From Membranipora membranacea (taxonomy: Eukaryota; Bryozoa; Gymnolaemata; Cheilostomatida; Membraniporidae), in assembly GCA_914767715.1 (NCBI GenBank), contig OU612065.1, positions 33,106,001 through 33,170,000 of the forward strand: a stretch of DNA of 64,000 nt, given 5' to 3'. The position numbers were made by a program, and so were the translations under genes. Positions 1-64,000 of this stretch are shown here, in pieces. The notes under the pieces were generated by a model. The model ran no database searches. It was not told where the DNA came from and saw only the letters and a list, made by a program, of their open reading frames with translations. Positions within the stretch are counted from its first letter, which is position 1; every line of letters begins with the position of its first letter.

Positions 1-41
1 AAAAACCACTTATCAAATATTTATTCTCATCTGGATTCCAA

Positions 42-88
42 CTTTGACTCAGACTAAAGCTGAAGCTTTTTCAATACATGATACTTAG
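42..88 (+). pseudogene. Relic extra exon 3 inside intron 2 of L1
   Basis: Reading from position 42 in the same phase as the true exon 3 gives LTQTKAEAF then TIHDT and a stop. This lines up with the start of the real exon (VSQTEAGV). The base pattern before it (ATTCCAACT) resembles the real acceptor (TTTCCAGCT) but lacks the AG. I infer a tandem exon duplication whose upstream copy lost its splice site. Confidence 0.6.
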
Positions 89-175
89 CCTGTTCCCTCC
101 CCCCCCCTAATGTATGTCATGAAAGAAAGTGAGAGTGAGCTCATATTAGATATATGTTCTCATCTATCTTTACAG

Positions 176-264
176 CTGTCTCACAGACAGAAGGTGGAGT
201 TGCAGAAGCAATTTATAAAGCGGGGGTGAAAAGTGGAGCTGCACTCGATAAGTTTTTTGGCTAA
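176..264 (+). CDS. L1: secreted short-form peptide, partial (exon 3 only in window)
   Basis: Only the second coding exon is visible; exons 1 and 2 lie left of the window. The acceptor TTTACAG ends at 175. The 89-base coding part opens in phase 1 and reads VSQTEGGVAEAIYK, then AGVKSGAALDKFFG and TAA at 262-264. The exon continues as UTR to 282, where the donor CAG|GTAATA starts. Exon 4 (3' UTR) starts at 524 after TTTTTCAG and ends near 675; a TATAAA at 653-658 stands where L6 and L7 have AATAAA. The peptide matches the L3 copy on the opposite palindrome arm. Function is unknown; a small secreted amphipathic peptide is inferred from the family. Confidence 0.8.
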
Positions 265-675
265 CTTGGTGAAACGAAACAGGTAATAACTGGAAAAGTA
301 ACAAAAATACTTTGATATGATCATTTTGTGAAATTTTAGTCTGAACGACCATACACCTGATTTTAATGAACAGGACCGGTTAAACTGGTTTGAAGTCATC
401 AATCTACAAATCAGAATGATTCCATCGAATGACCTGTGGCATGTATCTTTCGGATACTTACTACAATGTTATCACCAAACCAATGATTATAGTAATTTCT
501 ATTCAGTTTTCTACATTTTTCAGGGTTCAATGCAACATGTAAACCACGATGAGAAGTATACCATGAGTTTAGTATCACCGCATTGTTTTTTGTCTGAAAC
601 ATTAAAATCCATTGTATTGTACAAAACCTTGATATATTTTTTGTTCCAAATATATAAAATATTGACTTACAACGA

Positions 676-2563
676 TGAAATTTCCCATTTATCAGTTGCA
701 AAGAATAAAGAGCAAATAAAGCAAATAAAGAGCAAAGAATAATATTTGTTGTTTTATAGTTAATTTGTGTAGTCTGAGTGTCTATATTTTGCATACACCT
801 CTTGTATATATTGAAAGGAATATTTTCGTATATACAAAATTGTCAGGGAGGTACAAAATATTGAGTTGTCTACCCCGTCACCTGGAATTGTTGCGCAGGA
901 CACCATGTTTTAACTAACAAATACGGTGTAAATACAAATATTTTTCTGTGCTCCATTGGCTGCAAAACAGCTGATGAAAGCCATTCACGCTAACATATCC
1001 CGAGGAGCGTAGATTAAGACTATACCAATAATCAGTAATAATACTACATGCTATGACACCAAGTATGTGTTTTTTTAGCATCAGCAAACATATTTTCAGT
1101 AATATTTTTGTCAATCATTTGTTCTGACGAGAATATGGCCTCATTCTCATATCACTTCTCTCCACTTAGGCATGTAGGATGTTTTATACAAAGTAGATCC
1201 TCGCTCAACCAGTTTGCGATTTTGTACTTTTTAATTGGTAGCAAAGTTTTGTAATCATTCCGCTAGAATAGATTGGCTGATGTATTCTAAATATGCAATT
1301 GCTGCCAACATTGACAGATTGCACAAAACAAAATGTAGGGTACGGTACGACTTAATAGATTTGAACATCAGCATTTCGTCGGCTTATCATTACATTACCT
1401 GGAGTGTTCTGTGCTTTGAAATATTGTCAGTGGAAAACTTTTTACACATAATCTCTTTAACAATATCTTCTCGTGGAGGGATGAGTAGGCCTATTTGCTT
1501 GGCTTCTAGAAGTGTGGTATGAAGGGAGTATCACAAGCTTTCATGCAACAATTTGGAACTAATCACTCTCAACTCAAATGGACTGCCTTCGAGTTACATA
1601 GTGATGAAACGAAAAGAAAAGATTTGCCCCGATCGGGGAAGCTCTGAATTATATGGTATATGGGTATAAAGAAGCAAGAGTAAATCAAACAGGCCTATCA
1701 TTCAATGACACAATAGGACTCGTCTGGTGGTCACTGTAAATTCTAAATTTATCAATGCAGCCGATAATAATAATCTGAGAGCTTTGAAAGATTATCTGCT
1801 TATAGGCTGTAATTTTCAGTGAGATTAGCTCATTGAATTTGAACAAGATTTTCACAGTGTCTATTTGACATTTGTTTGCCTTTCACTTGACATCAACTTC
1901 TCAGCCGAGGAAAATTGGATGTATTGTTGGTCTCCAAGTTATTTACCCATGAAGCCATAATCAAAATAAGCCAGTCAGAATGTTAATTTTGTTTACACTG
2001 GCATTCATAGGCAACCTTCACAGAACTTATAAGGTACCAGTTGATTTAAAAAATGGACAACCTGTGGATAAACACACAGATTATCATATAATGCTGGCTC
2101 AACTCTTGAAGTTGACCAAGAAGCACGGAAAATTATTGAAACATTGTTGCAAATACTGGAAAATAAGTGCACGAGAGAATTTGAGGTTTTTTTGCGAGGC
2201 AATCTCATTCTGGGCTTAATAACTCTGTACAATGATGTGCTTTGAAGCAGAGTTGGTGAAACAATTGGATGAAAATATACAAATGGAATTTGGACAATTA
2301 TCTAGTAGTTTGCATAAAAGGTTACAACTTCCCGCCCTCTCACTCTTCTGTCAAAGAATGATCATGATTGCACTTCCACTCAAACAACCATCATTATAAA
2401 AATGAATATTCGCGAATTTAAAAACTCACCGCATTCATTATCATAAGCACAAGTGTGTCATGATGACTTGTTACAAGTACAATGGAATGTGTGTGAAGGA
2501 TTGACAAACGGTATTAATTATACTTAGTTTGACAATTAAAAACTTTAATACTTTCTGCCAAAA
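676..2563. other. Gene-free downstream flank of L1 inside the palindrome arm
   Basis: About 1.9 kb with no supported gene. Open frames are short, appear on both strands, and are shared with the other arm simply because the DNA is duplicated. The sequence contains AGGCCTA-type words and a stretch whose reverse reading gives LLEAKQIGLL then IPPREDIVKEIM. That stretch could be a decayed mobile-element protein but I cannot identify it. Copies occur at 4108-6034, 29720-31800, 39837-41756 and 49150-51030. Confidence 0.6.
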
Positions 2564-3045
2564 TGTGGTGATTATAAAAATATATGACAATAGTAATACT
2601 TCGTTGTTCTGTTGATGACCGTTGAGTCTTTTAATTCAGATTTGAAGATGACTATATTTTGCCTTCACAACAGGAGTTGACATCCTGTACCAAAACTGAT
2701 CACACCATAACATTATCAGCAATTAATGGTTTCCGTCATAACTTCCAAAAAACAAAACATAAGACATGACAATATATTGCATCCTACGAATGTATATTTT
2801 TAGCATGAGGCAATGTAAGCTTGATATCCGGCTCAAAAGCATTTTTTTGGTTCACATTAATTACAGTAGAAATAATTGCAGCATTTTTGGTCTGCAATAC
2901 ACATATCAATCATCACAATCAGTAACAATAACAGACGGCGTGGTAATTTTTACCAAAAAAAAGGAAACCATTATTCAATTTGATACAATATTACCAAATC
3001 AAGAATACTTCCAGTTGGTTAGAAGCTTAAAGGAAAAATGTTTCA

Positions 3046-3054
3046 TATATAAAG
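3046..3054 (+). promoter_or_regulatory. TATA box of broken locus P8a
   Basis: TATATAAAG in the same context as the intact genes, downstream of a block beginning CTTCCAGTTGGTT. Exon 1 ends at 3122 with a normal GTAAGT donor, so the promoter half of the locus looks intact although the coding half is not. Confidence 0.7.
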
Positions 3055-3322
3055 AAGCTTCAACTAACAGCAATCACTCAGTTTTCCACAAACATATCAA
3101 TCTTCAGAATTCAAAACTAGCTGTAAGTAAACTTGTTAACCTGTGAACATGTAATACCTCATGTCTGAAAGTTGTCATTTGAAGTCACTTGAGTATTTTG
3201 ATTATGAACCACAAGGATGGTCATGAATCATTGTCTCAATACAAAGGAATACATTATTACGGGTAGAGCCATTTTAGGCAGCAGTTTGATTTGTTTCATC
3301 TACCCTATTTCAGATTTACAAC

Positions 3323-3335
3323 ATGAAGGTCTTTG
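3323..3335 (+). pseudogene. P8a: peptide locus lacking the signal-peptide core and exon 3
   Basis: Exon 2 starts at 3314 after TATTTCAG and reads ATGAAGGTCTTTG before a donor GTAAGT at 3336. Intact genes have 43 coding bases here; this has 13. Exactly 30 bases (ten codons, the hydrophobic signal core) are missing and the intron phase is kept. No recognisable exon 3 follows: after a normal-looking intron the sequence passes CTTTCCAAATAG near 3545 into arm-derived DNA. The three copies (P8a, P8b at 29658, P8c at 48381) share the lesion, so it predates the block duplications. Most likely a pseudogene. Confidence 0.75.
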
Positions 3336-4107: not shown

Positions 4108-6718
4108 GCAGAAAGTATTAAAGTTTTTAATTGTCAAACTAAGTATAATTAATACCGTTTGTTAATCCTTCACACACATTCCATTGTACTTGTAACAAGT
4201 CATCATGACACACTTGTGGAATCAGAGAGACAGAAGTCATTGTAAGCGGAGCTAACTTCCTGTCTTTTGCTTATGATAATGAATGCGGTGAGTTTTTTAA
4301 ATTCGCGAATATTCATTTTTATAATGATGGTTGTTTGGGTGGAAGTGCAATCATGATCATTCTTTGACAGAAGAGTGAGAGGGCGGGAAGTTGTAACCTT
4401 TTATGCAAACTACTAGATAATTGTCCAAATTCCATTTGTATATTTTCATCCAATTGTTTCACCAACTCTGCTTCAAAGCACATCATTGTACAGAGTTATT
4501 AAGCCCAGAATGAGATTGCCTCGCAAAAAAACCTCAAATTCTCTCGTGCACTTATTTTCCAGTATTTGCAACAATGTTTCAATAATTTTCCGTGCTTCTT
4601 GGTCAACTTCAAGAGTTGAGCCAGCATTATATGATAATCTGTGTGTTTATCCACAGGTTGTCCATTTTTTAAATCAACTGGTACCTTATAAGTTCTGTGA
4701 AGGTTGCCTATGAATGCCAGTGTAAACAAAATTAACATTCTGACTGGCTTATTTTGATTATGGCTTCATGGGTAAATAACTTGGAGACCAACAATACATC
4801 CAATTTTCCTCGGCTGAGAAGTTGATGTCAAGTGAAAGGCAAACAAATGTTAAATAGACACAGTGAAAATCTTGTTCAAATTCAATGAGCTAATCTTACT
4901 GAAAATTACAGCCTATAAGCAGATAATCTTTCAAAGCTCTCAGATTATTATTATCGGCTGCATTGATAAATTTAGAATTTACAGTGACCACCAGACGAGT
5001 CCTATTGTGTCATTGAATGATAGGCCTGTTTGATTTACTCTTGCTTCTTTATACCCATATACCATATAATTCAGAGCTTCCCCGATCGGGGCAAATCTTT
5101 TCTTTTCGTTTCATCACTATGTAACTCGAAGGCAGTCCATTTGAGTTGAGAGTGATTAGTTCCAAATTGCTGCATGAAAGCTTGTGATACTCCCTTCATA
5201 CCACACTTCTAGAAGCCAAGCAAATAGGCCTACTCATCCCTCCACGAGAAGATATTGTTAAAGAGATTATGTGTAAAAAGTTTTCCACTGACAATATTTC
5301 AAAGCACAGAACACTCCAGGTAATGTAATGATAAGCCGACGAAATGCTGATGTTCAAATCTATTAAGTCGTACCGTACCCTACATTTTGTTTTGTGCAAT
5401 CTGTCAATGTTGGCAGCAATTGCATATTTAGAATACATCAGCCAATCTATTCTAGCGGAATGATTACAAAACTTTGCTACCAATTAAAAAGTACAAAATC
5501 GCAAACTGGTTGAGCGAGGATCTACTTTGTATAAAACATCCTACATGCCTAAGTGGAGAGAAGTGATATGAGAATGAGGCCATATTCTCGTCAGAACATA
5601 TGATTGACAAAAATATTACTGAAAATATGTTTGCTGATGCTAAAAAAACACATACTTGGTGTCATAGCATGTAGTATTATTACTGATTATTGGTATAGTC
5701 TTAATCTACGCTCCTCGGGATATGTTAGCGTGAATGGCTTTCATCAGCTGTTTTGCAGCCAATGGAGCACAGAAAAATATTTGTATTTACACCGTATTTG
5801 TTAGTTAAAACATGGTGTCCTGCGCAACAATTCCAGGTGACGGGGTAGACAACTCAATATTTTGTACCTCCCTGACAATTTTGTATATACGAAAATATTC
5901 CTTTCAATATATACAAGAGGTGTATGCAAAATATAGACACTCAGACTACACAAATTAACAACAAATATTATTCTTTGCTCTTTATTTGCTTTATTTGCTC
6001 TTTATTCTTTGCAACTGATAAATGGGAAATTTCATCGTTGTAAGTCAATATTTTATATATTTGGAACAAAAAATATATCAAGGTTTTGTACAATACAATG
6101 GATTTTAATGTTTCAGACAAAAAACAATGCGGTGATACTAAACTCATGGTATACTTCTCATCGTGGTTTACATGTTGCATTGAACCCTGAAAAATGTAGA
6201 AAACTGAATAGAAATTACTATAATCATTGGTTTGGTGATAACATTGTAGTAAGTATCCGAAAGATACATGCCACAGGTCATTCGATGGAATCATTCTGAT
6301 TTGTAGATTGATGACTTCAAACCAGTTTAACCGGTCCTGTTCATTAAAATCAGGTGTATGGTCGTTCAGACTAAAATTTCACAAAATGATCATATCAAAG
6401 TATTTTTGTTACTTTTCCAGTTATTACCTGTTTCGTTTCACCAAGTTAGCCAAAAAACTTATCGAGTGCAGCTCCACTTTTCACCCCCGCTTTATAAATT
6501 GCTTCTGCAACTCCACCTTCTGTCTGTGAGACAGCTGTAAAGATAGATGAGAACATATATCTAATATGAGCTCACTCTCGCTTTCTTTCAAGACATACAT
6601 TAGGGGGGGGGAGGGAACAGGCTAAGTATCATGTATTGTAAAAGCTTCAGCTTTAGTCTGAGTCAAAGTTGGAATCCAGATGAGAATAAATATTTGATAA
6701 GTGGTTTTTTTCTATGTA
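4108..6718. repeat. Right arm of the palindrome, start of repeat unit U1
   Basis: Inverted copy of 1-2563. It contains the gene-free flank (4108-6034) and the 3' part of L3 on the minus strand. The same sequence is directly repeated at about 29890-32500 and 49165-51700. Homology to the left arm stops only because the window begins. Confidence 0.93.
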
Positions 6719-6846
6719 AAAAAAATCTTAAATCGGACAAAAGACCATGGGAGATCTTATATCTTATACATGCTTTATTGATATTTGAACTTTTTAAACT
6801 TACCAATTGAAGCGATAAGCATTGAGATCAGTACAAATACCTTCAT
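6446..6846 (-). CDS. L3: secreted short-form peptide precursor (43 aa)
   Basis: Minus-strand gene with four exons. Exon 1 (UTR) is about 7105-7064, exon 2 6856-6804 (coding 6846-6804, 43 bases), exon 3 6534-6428 (coding to TAA at 6448-6446), exon 4 (3' UTR) 6186 to about 6040. Exon 2 encodes MKVFVLISMLIASI, a hydrophobic signal-peptide core; Ser-13 and Ala-15 fit a signal-peptidase -3/-1 site. The remainder is VSQTEGGVAEAIYK, AGVKSGAALDKFFG: small-residue-rich with spaced lysines, suggesting an amphipathic helix. The terminal Gly could serve as an amide donor. The stop lies 18 nt before the last coding-exon donor, so no nonsense-mediated decay is expected. Family not recognised; a defence, toxin-like or signalling peptide are all possible. 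Confidence 0.85.
6622..6668 (-). pseudogene. Relic extra exon 3 inside intron 2 of L3
   Basis: The same decayed cassette as in L1 and L4: LTQTKAEAF, TIHDT, stop, with no AG acceptor. An adjacent poly-G run (6603-6611) is poly-C in gene orientation and varies in length among copies. Confidence 0.6.
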
Positions 6847-7131
6847 TATGTTTTATCTGGAGAGAGAATGAAACAATTCAAAATGATGTCTGTAACAGCC
6901 TAACCCTAAAACAAAATATGTACCACATTTCTATACAATACATGAGGTGTAGACAATAATTTATGACCCACTCTGTAATTTCAAATCACAAGAATCAAGT
7001 TGATTTAAATGCCAGCTTCCAGATATGAGATATGCAGGTTCACAGTTTGAAAGTTATACTTACAGCTAGCTCGGAATTCTGTGAATTGATATGAGTGTGG
7101 AGAACTGAGTGATTGCTGTTAGTTGAAGCTT

Positions 7132-8733: not shown

Positions 8734-8740
8734 ATTGAAT

Positions 8741-11730: not shown

Positions 11731-12012
11731 CTTCAACTAACAGCAATCACTCAGTTCTCCAGACTCATATCAATTCAAAGAGTTCCGAGCTAGCTGTAAG
11801 TATTTCTTTCAAACTGTGAACCTGCATATCTCATATCTGGAAGCTGGCATATAAATCAACTTGAGTCTTGTGATTTGAAATTACAGAGTGGGTCATAAAT
11901 TATTGTCTACACCTCATGTATTGTATAGAAATGTGGTACATATTTTTTTTTAGGGTTAGGCTGTTACAGACATCATTTTGAATCGTTTCATTCTCTCTCC
12001 AGATAAAACATA

Positions 12013-12426
12013 ATGAAGGTATTTGTACTGATCTCAATGCTTATCGCTTCAATTGGTAAGTTTAGAAATTTCAAATATCAATAAACCATGTATAAGATAT
12101 AAGAACCCCCGTGCTGATCACTGGTCTTTTGTCCGATTTAAGATTTTTTTCTACATAGAAAAAACCACTTATCAAATATTTATTCTCATCTGCATTCCAA
12201 CTTTGACTCAGACTAAAGCTGAAGCTTTTACAATACATGATACTTAGCCTGTTTCCTCCCCCCCCCCCCTTCTGTATGTCATGAAAGAAGGTGAGAGTGA
12301 GCTCATATTAGATATATGTTTTCATCTATCTTTACAGCTGTCTCACAGACAGAAGCTGGAGTTGCAGAAGCAATTTATAAAGCGGGGGTGAAAAGTGGAG
12401 CTGCACTCGATAACTTTTTTGGCTAA
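12013..12426 (+). CDS. L4: secreted short-form peptide precursor (43 aa)
   Basis: Exon 1 (UTR) is about 11750-11795. Exon 2 is 12003-12055 with ATG at 12013; the 43 coding bases give MKVFVLISMLIASI. The intron is phase 1. Exon 3 is 12338-12444 with TAA at 12424-12426. Exon 4 (3' UTR) runs from 12709 after TTTTTCAG to about 12860. After the predicted signal cut at Ala-15 the peptide is VSQTEAGVAEAIYK, AGVKSGAALDNFFG. It differs from L3 by Gly to Ala and Lys to Asn. L4b and L4c, 26 and 46 kb away, encode the identical protein, although introns and flanks differ. The start is the only ATG giving a signal peptide and lies 10 nt inside exon 2. Function unknown. Confidence 0.87.
12201..12247 (+). 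pseudogene. Relic extra exon 3 inside intron 2 of L4
   Basis: LTQTKAEAF, TIHDT, stop, in the phase of the true exon, preceded by ATTCCAACT in place of a TTTCCAGCT-type acceptor. Equivalent cassettes are at 37875-37921 (L4b) and 58077-58123 (L4c). In L3b the terminal stop is changed to a sense codon. Confidence 0.6.
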
Positions 12427-12429
12427 CTT

Positions 12430-15400
12430 GGTGAAACGAAACAGGTAATAACTAGAAAAGTAACATTAATATTTTGACATGATAATTTTGTGGAATTTTA
12501 GTCTGAACGACCATACACCTGATTTTAATGAACAGAACAGGTTAAACTGGTTTATCAATCAGTTAATCAATCATTATCAGTCATCAATCTACAAATCAGA
12601 ATGATTCCATCAAATGACCTGTGGCATGTATCTTTAGGATACTTACTACAATGTGATCACCAAACCAATGATTATAATCATTTCTATTCAGTTTTCTTCA
12701 TTTTTCAGGGTTCAATGCAATATGTAAACCACGATGAGAAGTATACCATGAGTTTAGTATCACCGCATTGTTTTTTGTCTGAAACATTAAAATACATTGT
12801 ATTGAACAAAACCTTGATATATTTTTTCTTCCAAATATACAAAATATTGACTTACAACGATGAAATTTCCCATTTATCAGTTGAGAGCAAAGAATAATAT
12901 TTGTTGTTTTATAGTTAATTTGTGTAGTCTGAGTGTCTATATTTTGCATACACCTCTTGTATATATTGAAAGGAATATTTTCGTATTTACAAAATTGTCA
13001 GAGAGGTACAAAATATTGAGTTGTCTACCCCGTCACCTGGAATTGTTGCTGGTCACATTGACATTAACATAATTCTGATCTACGACATAAGAAACACAAT
13101 ATTCTACGGTGAATTTTAATGTACACGGAATAGTAGAAGGTGTCGTACCATTATGAATATGAAACGAGATGTTTTCCAGGACACGAATTAGTCTTATCAT
13201 TTCAGGTTCCCAGATAAATTATGCAACCTCTCTTAGAATGCCTGATACCAATATAATCAATATTGAGAGTTACTTTTACAAAATGCAATCAGTAAATTTG
13301 CTTGACGACTTAACAATAGGAGGTTTATATTTATTATGTGGTTTTATAATTTTCACCAGTACGAATAATTGCTTTTGTTAACAATTTAGGTCTATTATGA
13401 CTCGAATGGAAATATTATTATCATTCTGATGAATTAAGGCTGCGAGGTTTTACTGACCAAACACAGATTAAATCAACGTCTTGTAGCTAGTCCTGCAGCA
13501 GTAATGCAAGCTTTTACATCGAACAAATTAATTGTGTTTTTGGCTAAAATTTATCTATAGTTTGTGTAGCCTGCCTTCTCCTCATATTTGATGTACATTT
13601 TGGTAAGGTAATCCAAAAGAACGCCCAAAAACACCTCAAAAGTCCCAAAAAATAGCTGTTTATGGCACTCTTTTGCTTTGAATTAAAAAAAAATGAAGAC
13701 GCAAAGAAAACTTCAGTTGGCATTTCTTGTGTGCACCATGGTTAATGAAAGGGGCTTCGTATGAGAGGACTTTAAAAAAATACTCTGCCTGTCCACAATA
13801 ATGGTCATTTGGACAGCATGTTTGACGTTATGCAAAGGTGGCGAAAATATTAGCTGTATTCGAGAATCTACTGTCATTGCAATATGCAAGCTAATTTGTT
13901 GAAAGTCAATGTGTATGGCATTTGAACAGTACTTTAAGAGAAAATCATAATTAATTTTGTTTCGAGCCTATGATGTGTTCTGAATTAATCATTGAAGCTT
14001 CACATATACATATAGGGCAATATATATAGCTTTCAACCATATGGTTTCTATACTGAACAGCTTTGTGAGCTGAAGGCTTGAGTTCATTATTCTTAAAAAT
14101 TTGAGTGCTTAGGCCTATACCGGTCTGTTGGATCTTCTTAGAATTTGCTGTCGGATATTCGACCTGCCTAAAGTAACAATACAATTCTTATTGTTTTGCA
14201 GCCAATGGAGCGCAGAAAAATATTTGTATTTACACCTTATTTGTTAGTTAAAACACGTTGTCCTGCTCAAATATGCATTCAAAATTGAAGTTGTGCATCT
14301 TCAACAAGAGATGAGACAACTAGAAGAATTGCTTGTGAGCAGATATTGTCAGCTGTTGTGCGCTCCTACTTCTTGGTTATTTGTTTAAGGTGCACTGATA
14401 CTCACTCAGTATATGCATGTGCTCTATTTTTATAAGCTTGAACTTAAGCTTGTTTTTTTCTGACTGCTCACCTACACTTTTGCATGTTCCCCTCAAAGAC
14501 TACACCAAGACACATAAAGTCTAAAGCAGTTTATTGACAGGTAGCCAGTTCCACGATTAATAATGCAATATTTTTACACCAAAATTATTCATGGCACCTT
14601 AAAGCAAATTATATATATCATGTATTGTATGATCCTTCTTAGATATCAACATGAGGTACAAATTGCACAACTATAGTCAGTTTCCATTTCCATAGATCTT
14701 TTAGTTGTCAGGAAACATTGTGCAAAAGTCGATGACTAAATCATCAAGTTATGATGAGAGATTCGGCCATTGCCGTTCCCAAAATTGAAAAAGATGAAGT
14801 TTACTGAGATTATACAGTACATTACCAAAATGTACATATAATATGAGGAGAAGGCAGGCTGCACAAACTATAGATAAGTTTTAGCCAAAAACACAATTAA
14901 TTTGTTCAATGTAAAAGCTTGCATTACTGCTGCAAGACTAGCTACAAGACGTTGATTTGATCTGTGTTTGGTCAGTAAAACCTTGCAGCCTTAATTTATC
15001 AGAATGATAATAATATTTCCATTCGAGTCATAATTGACCTAAATTGTTAACAAAAGCAATTATCCATACTGGTGAAAATTATAAAACCACATATATAAAC
15101 CTCCTATTGGTAAGTCATCAAGCAAATTTACTGATTGCATTTTGTAAAAGTAACTCTTAATATTGATTAAGTTGGTATCAGGCATTCTAAGAGAGGTTGC
15201 ATAATTTATCTTGGAACCTGAAATGATAAGACTAATTCGTGTCCTGAAAAACATCTGGTTTGAATTGCAAAATGGTACGACACCTTCTACCTTTCCGTGT
15301 ACATTAAAATTCACCGTAGAAGATTGTGTTTCTAATGTCGTAAATCAGAATTATGTTTATGTCAAAAGTGCCCAGCAACAATTCCAGGTGACGGGGTAGA

Positions 15401-15960
15401 CAACTCAATATTTTGTACCTCTCTGACAATTTTGTATATACGAAAATATTCCTTTCAATATATACAAGAGGTGTATGCAAAATATAGACACTCAGACTAC
15501 ACAAATTAACTATAAAACAACAAATATTATTCTTTGCTCTCAACTAATAAATGGGAAATTTCATCGTTGTAAGTCAATATTTTATATATTTGAAACAAAA
15601 AATATATCAAGGTTTTGTACAATACAATGTATTTTAATGTTTCAGACAAAAAAACAATGCGGTGATACTAAACTCATGGTTAACTTCTCATCGTGGTTTA
15701 TATATTGCATTCAATCCTGAAAAATGAAGGAAACTGAATAGAAATTACAATAATAATTGGTTTGGTGATCACATTGTAGTAAGTATCCTAAATATACATG
15801 CTACAGGTCATTTGAAGGAATCATTCTGATTTGTAGATTGATGACTCCAAACCAGTTTAGCCTGTTATGTTCATTAAAATCAGGTGTATGTTTGTTCAGA
15901 CTTAAATTTCACAAAATTATCATGTCAAAATATTATTGTTACTTTTCTAGTTATGAGATA
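12430..15960. repeat. Convergent palindrome between L4 and L5 (U1)
   Basis: Tail-to-tail inverted repeat with axis near 14211: 13169 pairs with 15254, and the exon 4 acceptor of L4 (12709) pairs with that of L5r (15716). The recognisable arms are about 12430-13600 and 14830-15960, with a 1.2-kb asymmetric centre. The centre (14195-14270) keeps a fragment of the palindrome-arm sequence seen at 5755-5815. No supported gene. A minus-strand 77-codon frame (14184-13951) ends in a C-x2-C ... H-x2-G pattern reminiscent of a U1-type zinc finger, too weak to call. Confidence 0.75.
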
Positions 15961-16068
15961 TGCAGGTTCACAGTCTGAAAGAAATACTTACAGCTAGCTC
16001 GGAATTCTGTGAATTGATACGAGTGTGGAGAACTGAGTGATTGCTGTTAGTTGAAGCTGCTTTATATA
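15570..16068 (-). pseudogene. L5r: peptide locus with both coding exons deleted
   Basis: Promoter (TATATAAAG, minus strand, 16060-16068), exon 1 with donor at 15992 and the 3' UTR exon (acceptor side at 15716) are present. Intron 3 passes directly into intron 1 at about 15954. The intact U3 counterpart L5c has about 637 bp here (61832-62468) containing exons 2 and 3. Both breakpoints show a shared TAT, suggesting a microhomology deletion. Any transcript would be non-coding. Confidence 0.85.
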
Positions 16069-17485
16069 TGGAATATTTTCATTAGAACTGTCAAACCAAC
16101 TGGAAGTTTTCTATATTCGGAAATATGTGATCAAATAAAATAGTTGTTTCCCATTTCCCATTTCAGTAAATAGCATGCCATCTTTTATCTCCACAAATTG
16201 TGATAGTTGATAGGAATATTGCAGACCAAAAACGCTGTTATTCTTTTGCTGTAAGAAAATCTAACCAAAAAATGCTAGTGAGCCGGATAAACTGATTGAT
16301 TTGCCCAATGCTAACTAAACAGAAGCGTATGCCTTAAAAATGAAAAGGATGTAGAAATTAATGCCATGTCATATGTATTCTTTGATGGAAGTTATGAGGG
16401 AAACCATTAATATGATGTTACAGTGTAGTTGGTAACGGAACAGGATAGCATGTCATGCTGGATAGTTTATGTATCAGGGATAAGCAAAGTATTGTCACAT
16501 TCTAAATATTATTATTAGGTCATAAACAGAAAAAAAACCTCAAATCAAATCATTATAAACCCCTAAAATACCAAAAATCAGAGAGCTAATAACTTATAAG
16601 ACCGGCAGGCGAACACGAGTTTCCTTGCCAACAAATATGCCTGTTTGTCGAAGAGCGAAATTGATGAGATCATTTTTCTATAAGTATGGTAAATTTTAGA
16701 GTTTTATTTTAATTACTGAATGAATAACCTTGTAAATTTTTATTCTTGCATTTTATTAGAACAATTATTTCTAGTGGAATTCTCTCCAGTGCATCATTTC
16801 ATAATGATTTTAGGAGGAAATAATAGAACATACGTACAAAAACACAGAAACAGGAGCCTTGAAGATGAAGAGGATATGCAAAATTATACCATGTCATATG
16901 ATCGTTTTGTGGAAGTGATTTTGGAAACCATTAATTGCTGGTGATGTAATGGTTCAATTGGTAACTGAACAGGATACCAAGTCCTGTTGGATAGTTGAAG
17001 TATCAGAGAAGGGCAAAAGATTGTTATCATTTTGTCAGAAAAAAATTGAAAAAAGTAATGCATAAGAAAACAGAAAAGAAACTGCTCAAATCTTATTTAA
17101 AACACTTACTTGCCTTGTTTGTTTTGAAATTCCACAACATCCACAACATGATCAGTGAGAGAAAAAATAGAGAATAAATTTAATTATAATGCCGAGAATC
17201 TTCAAAATGAATTGCGTGTATCTGGATAGTGTTGCATAGATTTTAACACGCTTATACACGCCATTGTTTGCCTCCTTATAAAGTTGGACATTTATATTTA
17301 CAAGAGTGGTATCACATAACAACCATAGAAAACAGATGCTGGTAATGATAACAGCAAAGACATACCGACTCAGTAACCAGAATACCAAACACGTTACGCA
17401 ATAGTTTTAAGATCATATAGTTCAATTGATGAAATACCTCTCAAAAACTTAATATGGACAGTGGTTCAATAAACCTTAACTAACA
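16069..17485. other. L5 upstream region, no gene
   Basis: To about 16510 this is the promoter block of L5 reading leftward. A second, detached promoter-like fragment (16790-16995, same orientation) contains CATTAATTGCTGG and the exact hairpin AACAGGA-TACCAAG-TCCTGTT at 16968-16988. A 74-codon frame at 16720 and a minus-strand 78-codon frame at 17388-17152 are near-identical in U3. They overlap this non-coding repeat or lack any recognisable feature, so I do not call them genes. Confidence 0.55.
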
Positions 17486-19371: not shown

Positions 19372-19640
19372 TATATAACGAAGCTTCAACTAATAGCAAG
19401 CACTCACATTTCCACACTAATATCAATACACAGAAGTCTGAGCTAGCTGTAAGTAGAATTTTTAACTGTGAACCTGCATATCTCATGTCTGGAAGTTGTC
19501 ATTTGAAGCAACTTGAGTTTTGTGATTACAAACCACCCGGATGGTCATGAATCATTGTCTCATTACAAAGTTACCCTTTTTTTACGCTTTTTCAGGCAGC
19601 AGTTTGAATTGTTTCATTTTCCCTATTTCAGATCAACAAA

Positions 19641-20061: not shown

Positions 20062-20096
20062 CTCAGTTAAACCAAACAGGTAACAACTACAGCGAT

Positions 20097-21868: not shown

Positions 21869-22090
21869 CAATAATAACAATAATAACAATAATTAATTGA
21901 TATATCAATTTTGTGAGCACCTGAACACCTGATTATAATGAGAGGACATCATACACAGATGAAGAACAGGGTAAACAGATTTGAAGTCATTAATCTACAA
22001 ATCAAATGACCTGTAGCGCATATCTTATTACAACAGGAATATCAAGCAAATGAATTTCATAATCTCTATACAGTTTTTATTCTTTTTCAG

Positions 22091-44056: not shown

Positions 44057-44344
44057 TTTTTAGTGTGTTGTTTTTACTATGCCATACCATCGCTCGCATT
44101 CTGTACCATCTGTCATGATGATTGAATGAATACAAATCAAATCAAATCAAAATCAAATCGAACAATGCATTGTATTATCTCATATTTGAAAGTTGTCATT
44201 TTAAGCTACTTGAGTCTTGAATGGTGATGATGGATGGATGGTGATGAATCATTGTCTCAATACAAAGATACACATTTCTTACAGGTCGAGCTTTTTCAGG
44301 CAGCAGTTTGAATTGTAATATTTTCCCTATTTCAGATTAATAAA

Positions 44345-44706
44345 ATGAAGGTATTTATACTGATCTCATCCCTCATAGCCTCAATCGGTAAGTTTACAAA
44401 AGTTTAAAAAATCAACAAACAAAGATGTGAAGTCTTTAACATCTGATTGCTGATCATTATGCTTTTGCCCAATTTTAGATTTATTTTTGCAGAAAATTCA
44501 ACTACATGTGTACTCGATTGTATTACATGATGACCTATATCACATGTGAAAGAAAGATGAAATCAAAATTAGCACATATTAGATATATGTTCTCATCTAT
44601 CTTTACAGCTGTCTCACAGACTGAAGTTGGGGTTGCTTCCTCAGTCATTGAAGGGGCAGTGAAAAGTGGAGCTGCAGGATTTGTTGCTGATCAAGCTGTG
44701 AAGTGA
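44345..44706 (+). pseudogene. L7b: long-form peptide gene with premature stop
   Basis: TATA-like TACATAAAG at 43174-43182, exon 1 to 43249, exon 2 44336-44387 (ATG 44345), exon 3 44609-44745, exon 4 from 45438 with AATAAA at 45563-45568. A G-to-T change turns AAG GGA into AAG TGA (stop 44704-44706), removing the conserved C-terminal GLDKLFG. The downstream in-frame remnant also has Gly to Cys before the old stop. A Lys-to-Glu change precedes (SVIEGAV). The stop is only 39 nt from the exon junction, so decay of the mRNA is not assured. A secreted 46-residue variant without the C-terminal helix end remains possible. Confidence 0.75.
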
Positions 44707-44914
44707 CTGGATAAGCTTTTTTGTTAACTCAGTTAAACAAAACAGGTAACAACTTCAATGGTGAGAATAATAAGTTGACATCAGTTTGGTGTGCTTTTAG
44801 TCTGAACAGGTTGAAGCCTTCGGTAGGCAGGTCTGGCAGCTAGTTCTCTTCAAATACTTTCAGATTCAGAAATATCAGAGCGCATTTGGGTAAAAATTAT
44901 GTGAAGTGTTAGAA

Positions 44915-45197
44915 ATTGTCCCCCTTCTCATCTATGAGCTTTGAGGTATTCATGGGGCCTAGTGCTGTGCCAACCTATCAAGCTTCCAATTCAAAATACT
45001 TTTTATTACCATTCTTTTCAACTTAAGTTAAAAAAAATATAGTTCCATTGTCAGGAGACATTATTGTTTACATTAGTAGATAAATTCATGAATTTATTCA
45101 GTTCTTTAAAGTAGATAGAAGTGATAAGTTTATTGGGCTGGTACAGCACTAGGCCCCATGAATACCTCATACCTTATATATGAGAAGGGAGGACAAT
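44915..45197. mobile_element. MITE in L7b intron 3
   Basis: Copy of the 25762-26044 element, ends ATTGTCC and GGACAAT. Confidence 0.78.
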
Positions 45198-45589
45198 GTC
45201 GACCACAACACATTTTTTTCGCAGAAGTGCTCTGAATTTTTTAAATGTGAAAAAACTGCTACGTAGAACTAGCTTCCAGACTATGTATTGCTGTGGTCCT
45301 TCTAGAGTCTTAAAACATTTTCGAAGTCATCAAGCTACAATTCAGATTGAATCTATCAAATTTCCTGTAGCATGTAACTTGTTACAACAGGAACATCAAA
45401 TGAATGATTTACATGAACAGTTTTCTTTCTTTTTCAGGACTCAATGCAATATGTAAGCCACAAGAATAGGATTTACCATGTATTATTTTTCAGCACATCG
45501 TGTTTTTGTCTGCAACATTAAAATATCTGCTTGTACAAGACCGCAAATGATTATTTGTTACGAATAAAAGATTGACTTGACTCGAAGCT

Positions 45590-51030: not shown

Positions 51031-51432
51031 GTCAATTTTTTATATATTTGGAACAAAAAATATATCAAGGTTTTGTACAATACAATGGATTTTAATGTTT
51101 CAGACAAAAAACAATGCGGTGATACTAAACTCATGGTATACTTCTCATCGTGGTTTACATGTTGCATTGAACCCTGAAAAATGTAGAAAACTAAATAGAA
51201 ATTACTATAATCATTGGTTTGGTGATAACATTGTAGTAAGTATCCGAAAGATACATGCCACAGGTCATTCGATGGAATCATTCTGATTTGTAGATTGATG
51301 ACTTCAAACCAGTTTAACCGGTCCTGTTCATTAAAATCAGGTGTATGGTCGTTCAGACTAAAATTTCACAAAATGATCATATCAAAGTATTTTTGTTACT
51401 TTTCCAGTTATTACCTCTTTCGTTTCACCAAG

Positions 51433-51836
51433 TTAGCCAAAAAACTTATCGAGTGCAGCTCCACTTTTCACCCCCGCTTTATAAATTACTTCTGCAACTC
51501 CACCTTCTGTCTGTGAGACAGCTGTAAAGATAGATGAGAACATATATCTAATATGAGCTCACTCTCGCTTTCTTTCATGACATACATTAGGGGGGGGGGG
51601 GAGGGAACAGGCTAAGTATCATGTATTGTAAAAGCTTCAGCTTTAGTCTGAGTCAAAGTTGGAATCCAGATGAGAATAAATATTTGATAAGTGGTTTTTT
51701 TCTATGTAAAAAAAATCTTAAATCGGACAAAAGACCATGGGAGATCTTATATCTTATACATGCTTTATTGATATTTGAACTTTTTAAACTTACCAATTGA
51801 AGCAATAAGCATTGAGATCAGTACAAATACCTTCAT
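51433..51836 (-). CDS. L3c: secreted short-form peptide precursor (43 aa)
   Basis: TATA box (minus) 52122-52130, exon 1 to 52054, exon 2 51846-51794 (coding from 51836), exon 3 51521-51415 (stop 51435-51433), exon 4 from 51173 downward. Same signal part as L3. The mature part VSQTEGGVAEVIYK, AGVKSGAALDKFFG has one Ala-to-Val change relative to L3. The third intron's donor context is changed (GAG|GTAATA instead of CAG|GTAATA), probably tolerated. Confidence 0.85.
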
Positions 51837-52121
51837 TATGTTTTATCTGGAGAGAGAATGAAACAATTCAAAATGATGTCTGTAACAGCCTAACCCTAAA
51901 ACAAAATATGTACCACATTTCTATACAATACATGAGGTGTAGACAATAATTTATGACCCACTCTGTAATTTCAAATCACAAGAATCAAGTTGATTTAAAT
52001 GCCAGCTTCCAGATATGAGATATGCAGGTTCACAGTTTGAAAGTTATACTTACAGCTAGCTCGGAATTCTGTGAAGTGATATGAGTGTGGAGAACTGAGT
52101 GATTGCTGTTAGTTGAAGCTT

Positions 52122-57604: not shown

Positions 57605-57888
57605 AAGCTTCAACTAACAGCAATCACTCAGTTCTCCAGACTCATATCAATTCAAAGAGTTCCGAGCTAGCTGTAAGTATTTCTTTCAAACTGTGAACCT
57701 GCATATCTCATATCTGGAAGCTGGCATATAAATCAACTTGAGTCTTGTGATTTGAAATTACAGAGTGGGTCATAAATTATTGTCTACACCTCATGTATTG
57801 TATAGAAATGTGGTACATTTTTTTTTTAGGGTTAGGCTGTTACAGACATCATTTTGAATCGTTTCATTCTCTCTCCAGATAAAACATA

Positions 57889-58301
57889 ATGAAGGTATTT
57901 GTACTGATCTCAATGCTTATCGCTTCAATTGGTAAGTTTAAAAATTTCAAATATCAATAAACCATGTATAAGATATAATATCCCCCATGCTGATCACTGG
58001 TCTTTTGTCCGATTTAAGATTTTTTTCTACATAGAAAAAACCACTTATCAAATATTTATTCTCATCTGCATTCCAACTTTGACTCAGACTAAAGCTGAAG
58101 CTTTTACAATACATGATACTTAGCCTGTTTCCTCCCCCCCCCCCTTCTGTATGTCATGAAAGAAGGTGAGAGTGAGCTCATATTAGATATATGTTTTCAT
58201 CTATCTTTACAGCTGTCTCACAGACAGAAGCTGGAGTTGCAGAAGCAATTTATAAAGCGGGGGTGAAAAGCGGAGCTGCACTCGATAACTTTTTTGGCTA
58301 A
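57889..58301 (+). CDS. L4c: secreted short-form peptide precursor (43 aa)
   Basis: Exon 2 is 57879-57931 (ATG 57889), exon 3 58213-58319 (TAA 58299-58301), exon 4 from 58584 to about 58735. The protein is identical to L4 and L4b; a synonymous change (AGC for AGT, Ser) is visible in exon 3. It forms the left partner of a tail-to-tail pair with L5c. Confidence 0.87.
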
Positions 58302-58319
58302 CTTGGTGAAACGAAACAG

Positions 58320-61300
58320 GTAATAACTAGAAAAGTAACAATAATATTTTGACATGATAATTTTGTGGAATTTTAGTCTGAACGACCATACACCTGATTT
58401 TAATGAACAGAACAGGTTAAACTGGTTTATCAATCAGTTAATCAATCATTATCAGTCATCAATCTACAAATCAGAATGATTCCATCAAATGACCTGTGGC
58501 ATGTATCTTTAGGATACTTACTACAATGTGATCACCAAACCAATGATTATAATAATTTCTATTCAGTTTTCTTCATTTTTCAGGGTTCAATGCAATATGT
58601 AAACCACGATGAGAAGTATACCATGAGTTTAGTATCACCGCATTGTTTTTTGTCTGAAACATTAAAATACATTGTATTGTACAAAACCTTGATATATTTT
58701 TTCTTCCAAATATACAAAATATTGACTTACAACAATGAAATTTCCCATTCATCAGTTAAGAGCAAAGAATAATATTTGTTGTTTTATAGTTTATTTGTGT
58801 AGTCTGAGTGTCTATATTTTGCATACACCTCTTGTATATATTGAAAGGAATATTTTGGTATATACAAAATTGTCAGAGAGGTACAAAATATTGAGTTGTC
58901 TACCCCGTCACCTGGAATTGTTGCTGGTCACTTTTGACATTAACATAATTCTGATCTACGACATAAGAAACACAATATTCTACGGTGAATTTTAATGTAC
59001 ACGGAATAGTAGAAGGTGTCGTACCATTATGAATATGAAACGAGATGTTTTCCAGGACACGAATTAGTCTTATCATTTCAGGTTCCCAGATAAATTATGC
59101 AACCTCTCTTAGAATGCCTGATACCAATATAATCAATATTAAGAGTTACTTTTACAAAATGCAATCAGTAAATTTGCTTGACGACTTAACAATAGGAGGT
59201 TTATATTTATTATGTGGTTTTATAATTTTCACCAGTACGAATAATTGCTTTTGTTAACAATTTAGGTCTATTATGACTCGAATGGAAATATTATTATCAT
59301 TCTGATGAATTAAGGCTGCGAGGTTTTACTGACCAAACACAGATTAAATCAACGTCTTGTAGCTAGTCCTGCAGCAGTAATGCAAGCTTTTACATCGAAC
59401 AAATTAATTGTGTTTTTGGCTATAATTTATCTATAGTTTGTGTAGCCTGCCTTCTCCTCATATTTGATGTACATTTTGGTAAGGTAATCCAAAAGAACGC
59501 CCAAAAACACCTCAAAAGTCCCAAAAAATAGCTGTTTTTTGGCACTCTTTTGCTTTGAATTAAAAAAAAATGAAGACGCAAAGAAAAATTCAGTTGGCAT
59601 TTCTTGTGTGCACCATGGTTAATGAAAGGGGCTTCGTATGAGAGGACTTTAAAAAAAAACTCTGTTTGTCCACAATAATGGTCATTTGGACAGCATGTTT
59701 GACGTTATGCAAAGGTGGCGAAAATATTAGCTGTATTCGAGAATCTACTGTCATTGCAATATGCAAGCTAATTTGTTGAAAGTCAATGTGTATGGCATTT
59801 GAACAGTACTTTAAGAGAAAATCATAATTAATTTTGTTTCGAGCCTATTATGTGTTCTGAATTAATCATTGAAGCTTCACATATACATCTAGGGCAATAT
59901 ATATAGCTTTCAACCATATGGTTTCTATACTGAACAGCTTTGTGAGCTGAAGGCTTGAGTTCATTATTCTTAAAAATTTGAGTGCTTAGGCCTATACCGG
60001 TCTGTTGGATCTTCTGAGAATTTGCTGTCGGATATTCGACCTGCCTAAAGTAACAATACAATTCTTATTGTTTTGCAGCCAATGGAGCGCAGAAAAATAT
60101 TTGTATTTACACCTTATTTGTTAGTTAAAACACGTTGTCCTGCTCAAATATGCATTCAAAATTGAAGTTGTGCATCTCCAACAAGAGATGAGACAACTAG
60201 AAGAATTGCTTGTGAGCAGATTTTGTCAGCTGTTGTGCGCTCCTACTTCTTGGTTATTTGTTTAAGGTGCACTGATACTCACTCAGTATATGCATGTGCT
60301 CTATTTTTATAAGCTTGAACTTAAGCTTGTTTTTTTCTGACTGCTCACCTACACTTTTGCATGTTCCCCTCAAAGACTACACCAAGACACATAAAGTCTA
60401 AAGCAATTTATTGACAGGTAGCCAGTTCCACGATTAATAATGCAATATTTTTACACCAAAATTATTCATGGCACCTAAAAGCAAAAATTATATATCATGT
60501 ATTGTATGATCCTTCTTAGATACCAACATGAGGTACAAATTGCACAACTATAGTCAGTTTCCATTTCCATAGATCTTTTAGTTGTCAGGAAACATTGTGC
60601 AAAAGTCGATGACTAAATCATCAAGTTATGATGAGAGATTCGGCCATTGCCGTTCCCAAAATTGAAAAAGATGAAGTTTACTGAGATTATACAGTACGTT
60701 ACCAAAATGTACATATAATATGAGGAGAAGGCAGGCTGCACAAACTATAGATAAGTTTTAGCCAAAAACACAATTAATTTGTTCAATGTAAAAGCTTGCA
60801 TTACTGCTGCAGGACTAGCTACAAGACGTTGATTTGATCTGTGTTTGGTCAGTAAAACCTTGCAGCCTTAATTTATCAGAATGATAATAATACTTCCATT
60901 CGAGTCATAATTGACCTAAATTGTTAACAAAAGCAATTATCCATACTGGTGAAAATTATAAAACCACATATATAAACCTCCTATTGGTAAGTCATCAAGC
61001 AAATTTACTGATTGCATTTTGTAAAAGTAACTCTTAATATTGATTAAGTTGGTATCAGGCATTCTAAGAGAGGTTGCATAATTTATCTTGGAACCTGAAA
61101 TGATAAGACTAATTCGTGTCCTGAAAAACATCTGGTTTGAATTGCAAAATGGTACGACACCTTCTACCTTTCCATGTACATTAAAATTCACCGTAGAAGA
61201 TTGTGTTTCTAATGTCGTAAATCAGAATTATGTTTATGTCAAAAGTGACCAGGAACAATTCCAGGTGACGGGGTAGACAACTCAATATTTTGTACCTCTC

Positions 61301-61834
61301 TGACAATTTTGTATATACGAAAATATTCCTTTCAATATATACAAGAGGTGTATGCAAAATATAGACACTCAGACTACACAAATTAACTATAAAACAACAA
61401 ATATTATTCTTTGCTCTCAACTGATGAATGGGAAATTTCATCGTTGTAAGTCAATATTTTATATATTTGAAACAAAAAACATATCAAGGTTTTGTACAAT
61501 ACAATGTATTTTAATGTTTCAGACAAAAAAACAATGCGGTGATACTAAACTCATGGTTAACTTCTCATCGTGGTTTATATATTGCATTCAATCCTGAAAA
61601 ATGAAGGAAACTGAATAGAAATTACAATAATAATTGGTTTGGTGATCACATTGTAGTAAGTATCCTAAATATACATGCTACAGGTCATTTGAAGGAATCA
61701 TTCTGATTTGTAGATTGATGACTCCAAACCAGTTTAGCCTGTTATGTTCATTAAAATCAGGTGTATGTTTGTTCAGACTTAAATTTCACAAAATTATCAT
61801 GTCAAAATATTATTGTTACTTTTCTAGTTATTAC
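58320..61834. repeat. Convergent palindrome between L4c and L5c
   Basis: Inverted repeat with axis near 60088: exon 4 acceptors 58584 and 61593 and TATA boxes 57596 and 62582 are symmetric. Here both genes are intact, so the arms span whole genes and promoters. The centre, about 59470-60700, is asymmetric. No supported gene in 58740-61440 apart from the two 3' UTR exons. Confidence 0.8.
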
Positions 61835-61852
61835 CTGTTTTGTTTCACCAAG

Positions 61853-62288
61853 TTAACCAAAAAGCTTATCGAGTCCCTTCACAGCTTGATCGGCAACAAA
61901 TCCTGCAGCTCCAGTTTTCACTGCCCCTTTAACGACTGCAGAAACAACTCCAGCTTCTGTCTGTGAAACAGCTGTAAAGATAAATGAGAACATATATCTA
62001 ATATGAGCTCACACTCGATTTCTTTCATGACACACAATAGGGGGGAGGGAACAGGCTAAGTATCATGTATTGTAAAAGCTTCAGCTTTAGTCTGAGTCAA
62101 AGCGGGAATGCAGATGAGAATAAAATATTTGATGGTTCTTTTCTATGTAGAAAAACCTCTTAAATCGGACAAAAGACCAGTGATCAGCATGTGAGATCTT
62201 ATATCTTATACATGGTTTATTGATATTTGAACTTTTTAAACTTACCAATTGAAGCGATAAGCATTGAGATCAGCACAAATACCTTCAT
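61853..62288 (-). CDS. L5c: secreted long-form peptide precursor (53 aa)
   Basis: TATA box (minus) 62574-62582, exon 1 to 62506, exon 2 62298-62246 (coding from 62288), exon 3 61971-61835 (stop 61855-61853), exon 4 from 61593 to about 61450. Signal part MKVFVLISMLIASI as in the short-form genes. Mature part VSQTEAGVVSAVVKGAVKTG, AAGFVADQAVKGLDKLFG as in L6 except for one Thr-to-Ser. It thus combines a short-form-type promoter, exon 2 and intron 2 with a long-form exon 3. It is paired with a short-form gene (L4c) in one inverted repeat. Confidence 0.87.
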
Positions 62289-62573
62289 TATGTTTTATCT
62301 GGAGAGAGAATGAAACAATTCAAAATGATGTCTGTAACAGCCTAACCCGGAAACAAAATATGTACCACATTTCTTTACAATACATGAGGTGTAGTCAATA
62401 ATTTATGACCCACTCTGTAATTTCATATCACAAGACTCAAGTTGATTTAAATGTCAGCTTCCAGATATGAGATATGCAGGTTCACAGTCTGAAAGAAATA
62501 CTTACAGCTAGCTCGGAATTCTGTGAATTGATACGAGTGTGGAGAACTGAGTGATTGCTGTTAGTTGAAGCTG

Positions 62574-62582
62574 CTTTATATA
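62574..62582 (-). promoter_or_regulatory. TATA box of L5c
   Basis: TATATAAAG. CTTCCAGTTGGTTTGACA stands upstream (plus-strand 62604-62621, reversed). Confidence 0.75.
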
Positions 62583-64000
62583 TGGAATATTTTCATTAGA
62601 ACTGTCAAACCAACTGGAAGTTTTCTATATTCGGAAATATGTGATCAAATAAAATAGTTGTTTCCCATTTCCCATTTCAGTAAATAGCATGCCATCTTTT
62701 ATCTCCACAAATTGTGATAGTTGATAGGAATATTGCAGACCAAAAACGCTGTTATTCTTTTGCTGTAAGAAAATCTAACCAAAAAATGCTAGTGAGCCGG
62801 ATAAACTGATTGATTTGCCCAATGCTAACTAAACAGAAGCATATGCCTTAAAAATGAAAAGGATGTAGAAATTAATGCCATGTCATATGTATTCTTTGAT
62901 GGAAGTTATGAGGGAAACCATTAATATGATGTTACAGTGTAGTTGGTAACGGAACAGGATAGCATGTCATGCTGGATAGTTTATGTATCAGGGATGAGCA
63001 AAGTATTGTCACATTCTAAATATTATTATTAGGTCATAAACAGAAAAAAAACCTCAAATCAAATCATTATAAACACCCTAAAATACCAAAAATCAGAGAG
63101 CTAATAACTTATAAGACCGGCAGGCGAACACGAGTTTCCTTGCCAACAAATATGCCTGTTTGTCGAAGAGCGAAATTGATGAGATCATTTTTCTATAAGT
63201 ATGGTAAATTTTAGAGTTTTATTTTAATTACTGAATGAATAACCTTGTAAATTTTTATTCTTGCATTTTATTAGAACAATTATTTCTAGTGGAATTCTCT
63301 CCAGTGCATCATTTCATAATGATTTTAGGAGGAAATAATAGAACATACGTACAAAAACACAGAAACAGGAGCCTTGAAGATGAAGAGGATATGCAAAATT
63401 ATACCATGTCATATGATCGTTTTGTGGAAGTGATTTTGGAAACCATTAATTGCTGGTGATGTAACGGTTCAATTGGTAACTGAACAGGATACCAAGTCCT
63501 GTTGGATAGTTGAAGTATCAGAGAAGGGCAAAAGATTGTTATCATTTTGTCAGAAAAAAATTGAAAAAAGTAATGCATAAGAAAACAGAAAAGAAACTGC
63601 TCAATTCTTATTTAAAACACTTACTTGCCTTGTTTGTTTTGAAATTCCACAACATCCACAACATGATCAGTGAGAGAAAAAATAGAGAATAAATTTAATT
63701 ATAATGCCGAGAATCTTCAAAATGAATTGCGTGTATCTGGATAGTGTTGCATAGATTTTAACACGCTTATACACGCCATTGTTTGCCTCCTTATAAAGTT
63801 GGACATTTATATTTACAAGAGTGGTATCACATAACAACCATAGAAAACAGATGCTGGTAATGATAACAGCAAAGACATACCGACTCAGTAACCAGAATAC
63901 CAAACACGTTACGCAATAGTTTTAAGATCATATAGTTCAATTGATGAAATACCTCTCAAAAAGTTAATATGGACAGTGGTTCAATAAACCTTAACTAACA
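62583..64000. other. L5c upstream region, no gene
   Basis: Copy of 16069-17485. It includes the exact hairpin AACAGGA-TACCAAG-TCCTGTT near 63483 and the same unassigned small frames (63235-63459, 63510-63692, 63903-63667). Confidence 0.5.

What the first reader, a model, noticed from the sequence alone, without database searches (positions are those of the whole stretch)
1..64000. A multigene family of tiny secreted peptides in a dense inverted/tandem array
Nine complete and one edge-cut coding copies, one nonsense copy and eight relics share one 4-exon plan. A signal-peptide exon 2 and a mature-peptide exon 3 are joined by a phase-1 intron, with UTR exons on both sides. Mature parts of about 28 or 38 residues are Gly/Ala/Val/Lys-rich with lysines at helix-compatible spacing and end FG, allowing C-terminal amidation. 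I recognise no described family. Multicopy secreted amphipathic peptides are often defence or venom-type effectors; here that is inference only.
Basis: partly seen in the sequence, partly recalled or inferred. Interest (0 to 1): 0.9.

Follow-up and report, generated by a model that had tools for sequence, protein, structure and literature searches.

The report
Array of small secreted peptide genes
An animal-type genome segment carries a tightly packed family of similar genes that each appear to make one very small secreted peptide; the genes look real and at least the long form is under selection, but what the peptides do, and which animal this is, remain unproven.

Summary
Nine intact copies, one edge-cut copy, one nonsense copy and eight relics share one 4-exon plan. 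The long form's frame is truly coding: exon 3 of copies J and C differs by 11 synonymous and 1 nonsynonymous change (p 1.5e-6) while their intron 2 is 55% identical; only the proposed frame is open in all four copies examined. Short (28 aa) and long (38 aa) mature regions differ by an in-frame 30-nt gap. The long exon-3 part is modelled as two helices at modest confidence. No relative was found in Pfam, NCBIfam, PDB, IMG/VR or GTDB, but the large protein database was off and the genome search did not complete, so novelty is open. Best reading: a lineage-specific, linear, possibly amidated, host-defence-type peptide family growing by inverted and tandem duplication.

The parts
1..621 (+). edge-cut copy: exon 3 (176-282) and exon 4 (from 524); exons 1-2 outside the window
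6083..7106 (-). copy A, short form, intact (ATG 6846, stop ends 6446); outer ends approximate
   Evidence: exon-1 start inferred from TATA/TCAGT motif, end from poly(A) signal
11753..12806 (+). copy B, short form, intact (ATG 12013, stop ends 12426); outer ends approximate
19406..22233 (+). copy C, long form, intact (ATG 19641, stop ends 20061); intron 3 (2011 nt) holds a tandem SINE-like array, exon 4 from 22091; outer ends approximate
24025..26427 (+). copy D, long form, intact (ATG 25193, stop ends 25574); intron 1 (1116 nt) holds a reverse-transcriptase fragment; outer ends approximate
31855..32879 (-). copy E, short form, intact (ATG 32619); outer ends approximate
37427..38479 (+). copy F, short form, intact (ATG 37687); outer ends approximate
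43207..45583 (+). copy G, long form, broken by a nonsense codon, terminal Gly replaced; outer ends approximate
51071..52096 (-). copy H, short form, intact (ATG 51836); outer ends approximate
57630..58681 (+). copy I, short form, intact (ATG 57889); outer ends approximate
61490..62548 (-). copy J, mosaic: flanks and introns like the short copies, exon 3 like the long ones; intact (ATG 62288); outer ends approximate
3043..3335 (+). relic: exon 1 and truncated exon 2
   Evidence: exon 1 74.6 bits, exon 2 6.3 bits; sequence
15614..16072 (-). relic: exon 1 and exon 4, exons 2-3 missing
22704..22758 (-). relic of exon 2
   Evidence: 15.6 bits; sequence
27704..27823 (-). relic of exon 3
   Evidence: 36.8 bits
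29378..29670 (+). relic: exon 1 and truncated exon 2, in a 98.7% duplicate of the 3043 relic
41869..41930 (-). relic of exon 2, in a 96.9% duplicate of the 22758 relic
   Evidence: 17.2 bits
46861..46980 (-). relic of exon 3, in a 96.9% duplicate of the 27823 relic
   Evidence: 36.6 bits
48363..48393 (+). relic of exon 2, chance-level score on its own; in a 97.9% duplicate of the 3305 remnant
   Evidence: 6.3 bits

Best explanation
A lineage-specific multigene family of secreted, cysteine-free, linear peptides. Each gene makes one precursor: exon 2 carries the signal peptide, exon 3 the mature peptide, which ends directly before the stop with Phe-Gly, so that the Gly could be turned into a C-terminal amide without any dibasic cleavage. 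The long form probably folds, near a membrane, into two short helices joined at a Gly-Ala stretch; the short form lacks ten residues there. The family grows by inverted and tandem segmental duplication; copies decay, and the mature exon changes or is exchanged between copies. Shown by sequence: gene plan, coding frame and purifying selection on the long form, duplication, decay. Inferred: secretion, amidation, helices on membranes, and a host-defence (antimicrobial-like) role as the most likely function.
For: Gene plan in all copies. Long-form exon 3 under purifying selection: J/C 11 syn vs 1 nonsyn (p 1.5e-6), C/D 12 vs 6 (p 1.1e-4). Only the proposed frame of six is open in all 4 copies tested, C, J, D, B. 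Exon 3 of J and C 90% identical while intron 2 is 55%. Mosaic copy J: introns 7% diverged from B but the exon-3 core 28% (p 6e-5); against C and D introns 38-39%, core 11-15% (p 8.5e-5 and 8e-4) (core limits chosen after seeing the alignment). Helix-break-helix model, mean pLDDT 72. Duplicated units about 97-99% alike with inverted cassettes.
Against: J/D exon 3 is only 6 vs 5 (p 0.065); short against J shows no significant constraint (exon 3 p 0.54-0.55 for B, A, E); short against C or D is weak (whole CDS p 0.02-0.05, uncorrected for 15 pairs); copies F, H, I, G were not in these pairs. C/D core is no less diverged than their introns (12 of 47 vs 61 of 312, p 0.34). Low charge, especially of the short forms; at a fixed 100 degrees the long cores are not amphipathic beyond shuffles. 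pTM 0.31, no PDB fold match. Cut site ambiguous. No Rel/NF-kB-like site in the 700 bp upstream of 10 of 10 copies, but only 0.04 was expected by chance per stretch and one pattern was tried. No transcript, peptide or assay evidence.
Confidence: 0.5

Rival explanations
1. Secreted signalling, reproductive-tract or mucus peptides rather than defence effectors: the same gene structure, but a near-neutral amidated peptide that acts on a receptor or in seminal fluid or mucus.
For: Near-neutral charge of the short forms; near-identity of the long peptide in J and C despite diverged introns suits a receptor ligand as well as a membrane peptide.
Against: Copy-number growth, decay and a mature exon that differs more than its surroundings are, from general knowledge, commoner in defence or venom families; no dibasic sites in the precursors (read from the translations), unlike most neuropeptide precursors.
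Confidence: 0.27
2. Venom or cytolytic peptides from a venom-producing invertebrate.
For: Multicopy; an 18-residue C-terminal stretch of the long form with moment 0.41 (no shuffle control for that stretch); amidation-ready end.
Against: No pro-region, no cysteines, low charge; the organism is not known, so no venom gland can be assumed.
Confidence: 0.08
3. Passenger exons of a repetitive element or mostly dead duplicates: the array is amplified as selfish or neutral DNA and few copies matter.
For: Eight relics and one nonsense copy; a reverse-transcriptase fragment and a SINE-like array lie in introns; duplicated units about 97-99% alike.
Against: Selection signature on the long-form frame; Pfam matched no mobile-element protein in the two precursors scanned and Rfam's only hits in the window are the SINE-like units; the mobile fragments lie inside introns of single copies or one duplicated pair, not in the shared cassette.
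Confidence: 0.07
4. Part of the apparent copy number is an assembly effect: superunits around 3191-17485 and 48249-64000 are allelic haplotypes joined end to end. This can hold together with any of the other readings.
For: They are 98-99.5% identical over several kb, within the heterozygosity of many marine invertebrates (recalled).
Against: The middle superunit differs more (about 97%) and the spacing of shared blocks differs; the divergent copies A/B/C/D/J cannot be alleles. It would lower the count, not remove the family.
Confidence: 0.2

Closest known systems
Insect cecropins
   Same: Linear helix-hinge-helix peptide, variable multigene clusters with pseudogenes, amidated C-terminus shown in a figure legend (PMC6929098, passages seen).
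   Different: No Pfam match of any kind to cecropins for the two precursors scanned; less basic; no Pro in the hinge. The cecropin gene plan was not in the passages seen; that it lacks this four-exon plan is recalled.
Myticalins / modiocalins (mussels)
   Same: Linear cysteine-free peptides, clustered diverse family with pseudogenes, 5' UTR exon, phase-1 coding intron, frequent amidation signal (PMC5577615, PMC12294457, passages seen).
   Different: Myticalins have three exons, signal and mature peptide together in exon 2, an anionic C-terminal extension behind a dibasic site, and strongly cationic Arg-rich peptides; none of these here.
Mytilins (mussels)
   Same: Four exons and three introns, signal peptide then mature peptide (PMC7168163, passages seen).
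   Different: Mytilins are cysteine-rich and have an anionic C-terminal extension; here no cysteine and no extension in intact copies.
Ceratotoxins (medfly accessory gland)
   Same: Multicopy short helical peptides (recalled; only a search listing was seen).
   Different: No sequence comparison was made.

Membership tests
Cecropins | Match to the curated Pfam profile | tested here: not met
   the long precursor (C) hits only DUF735 at E 0.058, below its cut-off; the short one (B) nothing, at E up to 10
Cecropins | Basic N-terminal amphipathic helix, Pro/Gly hinge, hydrophobic C-terminal helix | tested here: inconclusive
   two helices broken at residue 20 (pLDDT 72), but low charge and no Pro
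Cecropins | C-terminal amidation | not testable with these tools
   FG before the stop in 9 of 9 intact copies allows it
Myticalins | Three exons; signal and mature peptide both in exon 2 | tested here: not met
   against PMC5577615 passages
Myticalins | Anionic C-terminal extension after a dibasic site | tested here: not met
   translations
Mytilins | Cysteine-rich mature peptide | tested here: not met
   no Cys in 9 of 9 intact precursors
Secreted linear defence peptide (functional class) | Antimicrobial or membrane activity | not testable with these tools
   no assay; physical properties only
Secreted linear defence peptide (functional class) | N-terminal signal peptide | tested here: inconclusive
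   hydrophobic stretch and small residues at -3/-1 by a matrix recalled from memory; no trained predictor available

The most novel reading that the evidence does not exclude
A previously undescribed animal family of near-neutral, amidated, helix-hinge-helix secreted peptides in which a short form lost the hinge and the start of the second helix, and in which the mature exon is exchanged between paralogues while the long-form peptide is held nearly unchanged by selection.
Probability: 0.4. Interest if true: 0.6.

Novelty: new member of a known kind. Interest (0 to 1): 0.45.

Why it matters
Lineage-specific families of tiny secreted peptides are easily missed by gene annotation because the coding parts here are only 43 and 89 or 119 bases long. 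A dense array with intact, mosaic, broken and relic copies side by side shows how such families expand, change their mature exon and die, and it supplies candidates for peptide testing.

Tried and rejected
The long precursor of C against PDB sequences: none. Long (C, J) and short (B) precursors against Pfam and NCBIfam: nothing at or near a curated cut-off. Fold search with the long exon-3 model: no match. Long precursor of C in viral and prokaryote contigs: 36 and 308 pattern matches, none confirmed. Literature searches for stretches of the peptides as letters: 0 papers in two searches; topic searches listed papers on other subjects or known families or none. Rfam's tRNA hits are five units of a tandem repeat that ARAGORN does not call. 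Long ORFs over exon 4 (such as 411-842) were set aside: they run across introns and UTR and were not sent to a family search. Rel/NF-kB-like sites: none in 10 of 10 upstream stretches, uninformative at 0.04 expected. Cecropin membership was rejected on the profile test.

A slip of mine: I kept three intron bases at the exon-3 start, which added one spurious codon; one search repeats the count with the right junction and is the one cited for dN/dS. The exon-3 identity of 90% quoted includes those three bases and one base after the stop; the intron figures are unaffected.

After the filing check I mended the amphipathicity account (one search had been left out), the C/D control, the synonymous-site argument about J, the weight of the scan, and the superunit start (3191, not 1).
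Full report
What is there. Exon models searched over the whole window show a repeated cassette on both strands. Assembled with splice rules it makes nine intact genes, six of the short form (A, B, E, F, H, I) and three of the long form (C, D, J). One copy is cut by the left edge, one (G) carries a nonsense codon and has its final Gly replaced, and eight are relics. In 20 simulated windows the best chance scores were 8.8, 9.2, 6.1 and 16.3 bits for exon models 1 to 4. The copies A-J were used to build the models, so their high scores are partly by construction; the edge-cut copy (140.2 and 113.5 bits) and the exon 4 of C (37.9 bits) were not. Three exon-2 remnants (3305, 29640, 48363; 6.3 bits) are at chance level alone; two have a strong exon 1 upstream and the third rests on duplication.

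Gene plan. Upstream of exon 1 lies a TATA-like box (CATATATAA in 8 of 10 copies, CATACATAA in D and G), followed by TCAGT in 9 of 10 (TCACA in C); the transcription start is inferred from this. Exon 1 ends GCT before GTAAGT. Exon 2 starts about ten bases before ATG and ends one base into a codon, so the second intron is phase 1. Exon 3 holds the mature region, the stop and 18 bases of 3' UTR in the intact copies; exon 4 holds the rest, with ATTAAA or AATAAA. Exon-1 donors and exon-2/exon-4 acceptors were found by motif search, so only the exon 2-3 intron and the exon-3 ends are fully independent of the motif. Introns 1 of D and G are about 1.1 kb and hold a reverse-transcriptase fragment (Pfam match tested for D only); intron 3 of C is 2.0 kb and holds a tandem SINE-like array.

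The frame is coding. Between long copies J and C exon 3 has 11 synonymous and 1 nonsynonymous difference (p 1.5e-6), 11 of the 12 at third codon positions; C/D gives 12 and 6 (p 1.1e-4); J/D only 6 and 5 (p 0.065). Intron 2 of J and C is 55% identical. Of six frames of exon 3 only the proposed one is open in all four copies examined (C, J, D, B). Short copies differ too little among themselves to test. Short against J shows no significant constraint (exon 3 p 0.54-0.55), short against C or D a weak one (whole CDS p 0.02-0.05, 15 pairs, uncorrected). So selection is shown for the long form and only suggested for the short.

How the family evolves. Self-comparison (matches over 700 bp) shows superunits repeated in tandem at about 97-99% identity with inverted cassettes inside. 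Copy J is a mosaic: against B its introns differ at 50 of 682 sites (7%) but the exon-3 core at 13 of 47 (28%, p 6e-5); against C its introns differ at 160 of 420 (38%) and the core at 5 of 47 (11%, p 8.5e-5); against D 198 of 512 (39%) and 7 of 47 (15%, p 8e-4). The C/D pair does not show a conserved core: 61 of 312 against 12 of 47 (p 0.34). The core limits were chosen after seeing the alignment. Two readings remain: the long exon is held by selection and the short one changed fast, or a small exchange between paralogues took place. Synonymous divergence of J in exon 3 is 0.31 to B, 0.22 to D and 0.47 to C: more than the introns of J and B would predict, and closest to D, which favours an exchange with a D-like copy, but on few sites. 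The short form lacks 30 nt (ten residues) of the long form.

The peptide. The long exon-3 part is modelled as helix 4-19 and helix 21-37, mean pLDDT 72, pTM 0.31, from an alignment of 7 sequences. Tests of amphipathicity disagree. At a fixed 100 degrees the long cores are not above shuffles (P 0.13, 0.20) and the short cores are (P 0.013-0.017). With the angle free from 85 to 110 degrees the long cores have moment 0.44-0.45, P 0.001, but at 87 degrees, and the short forms P 0.04-0.07. Side-chain charge is +2 for the long core, +1 for the long 37-mer, and -1 to +1 for the short forms. The cut site is ambiguous: a matrix recalled from memory prefers SIA| in four of five precursors and TEA| in one.

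Function. A signal-like N-terminus, one peptide per precursor, an amidation-ready end, copy-number growth with decay, and a mature exon that differs more than its surroundings are, from general knowledge, the pattern of defence peptide families; low charge speaks against a strongly cationic membrane-lytic peptide. I therefore put host defence first at about one half, signalling or reproductive secretion second.

Known families. Pfam, NCBIfam, PDB sequences and PDB folds gave no relative, nor did viral and prokaryote contigs, where an animal gene is not expected. The large protein database was off and the genome search did not complete (nine tries). Two literature searches for stretches of the peptides as letters found 0 papers, in a library that lacks most subscription journals. 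Cecropins, myticalins and mytilins were compared from passages of PMC6929098, PMC5577615, PMC12294457 and PMC7168163, and each fails at least one tested defining feature. The source species is unknown; introns, retroelements and 35% G+C fit an animal, which is inference.

Noticed in passing
20097-21872: 404-bp unit repeated 4.4 times at 99% matches, with five tRNA-like stretches on the - strand (Rfam tRNA, 30.1 bits against a gathering score of 29) not called by ARAGORN: a tandemly amplified SINE-like element inside intron 3 of copy C.
   Followed up: partly
24085-24894 and 43364-44056: LINE-type reverse-transcriptase fragments in intron 1 of copies D and G. Only the first was scanned: Pfam RVT_1, E 4e-5, 23.8 bits, below the curated cut-off of 29.6.
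   Followed up: partly
1-2561 and 4105-6709: Large palindrome: the first 2.6 kb is the inverted copy of 4105-6709 at 97.3%, with stretches reported as 100% over 1672 and 753 nt; recent inverted duplication or an assembly fold-back.
   Followed up: no
3191-17485, 22585-39279, 41750-64000: Superunits sharing blocks at about 97-99% identity; the closest pair (3191-17485 and 48249-64000) could be haplotypes joined in assembly.
   Followed up: partly
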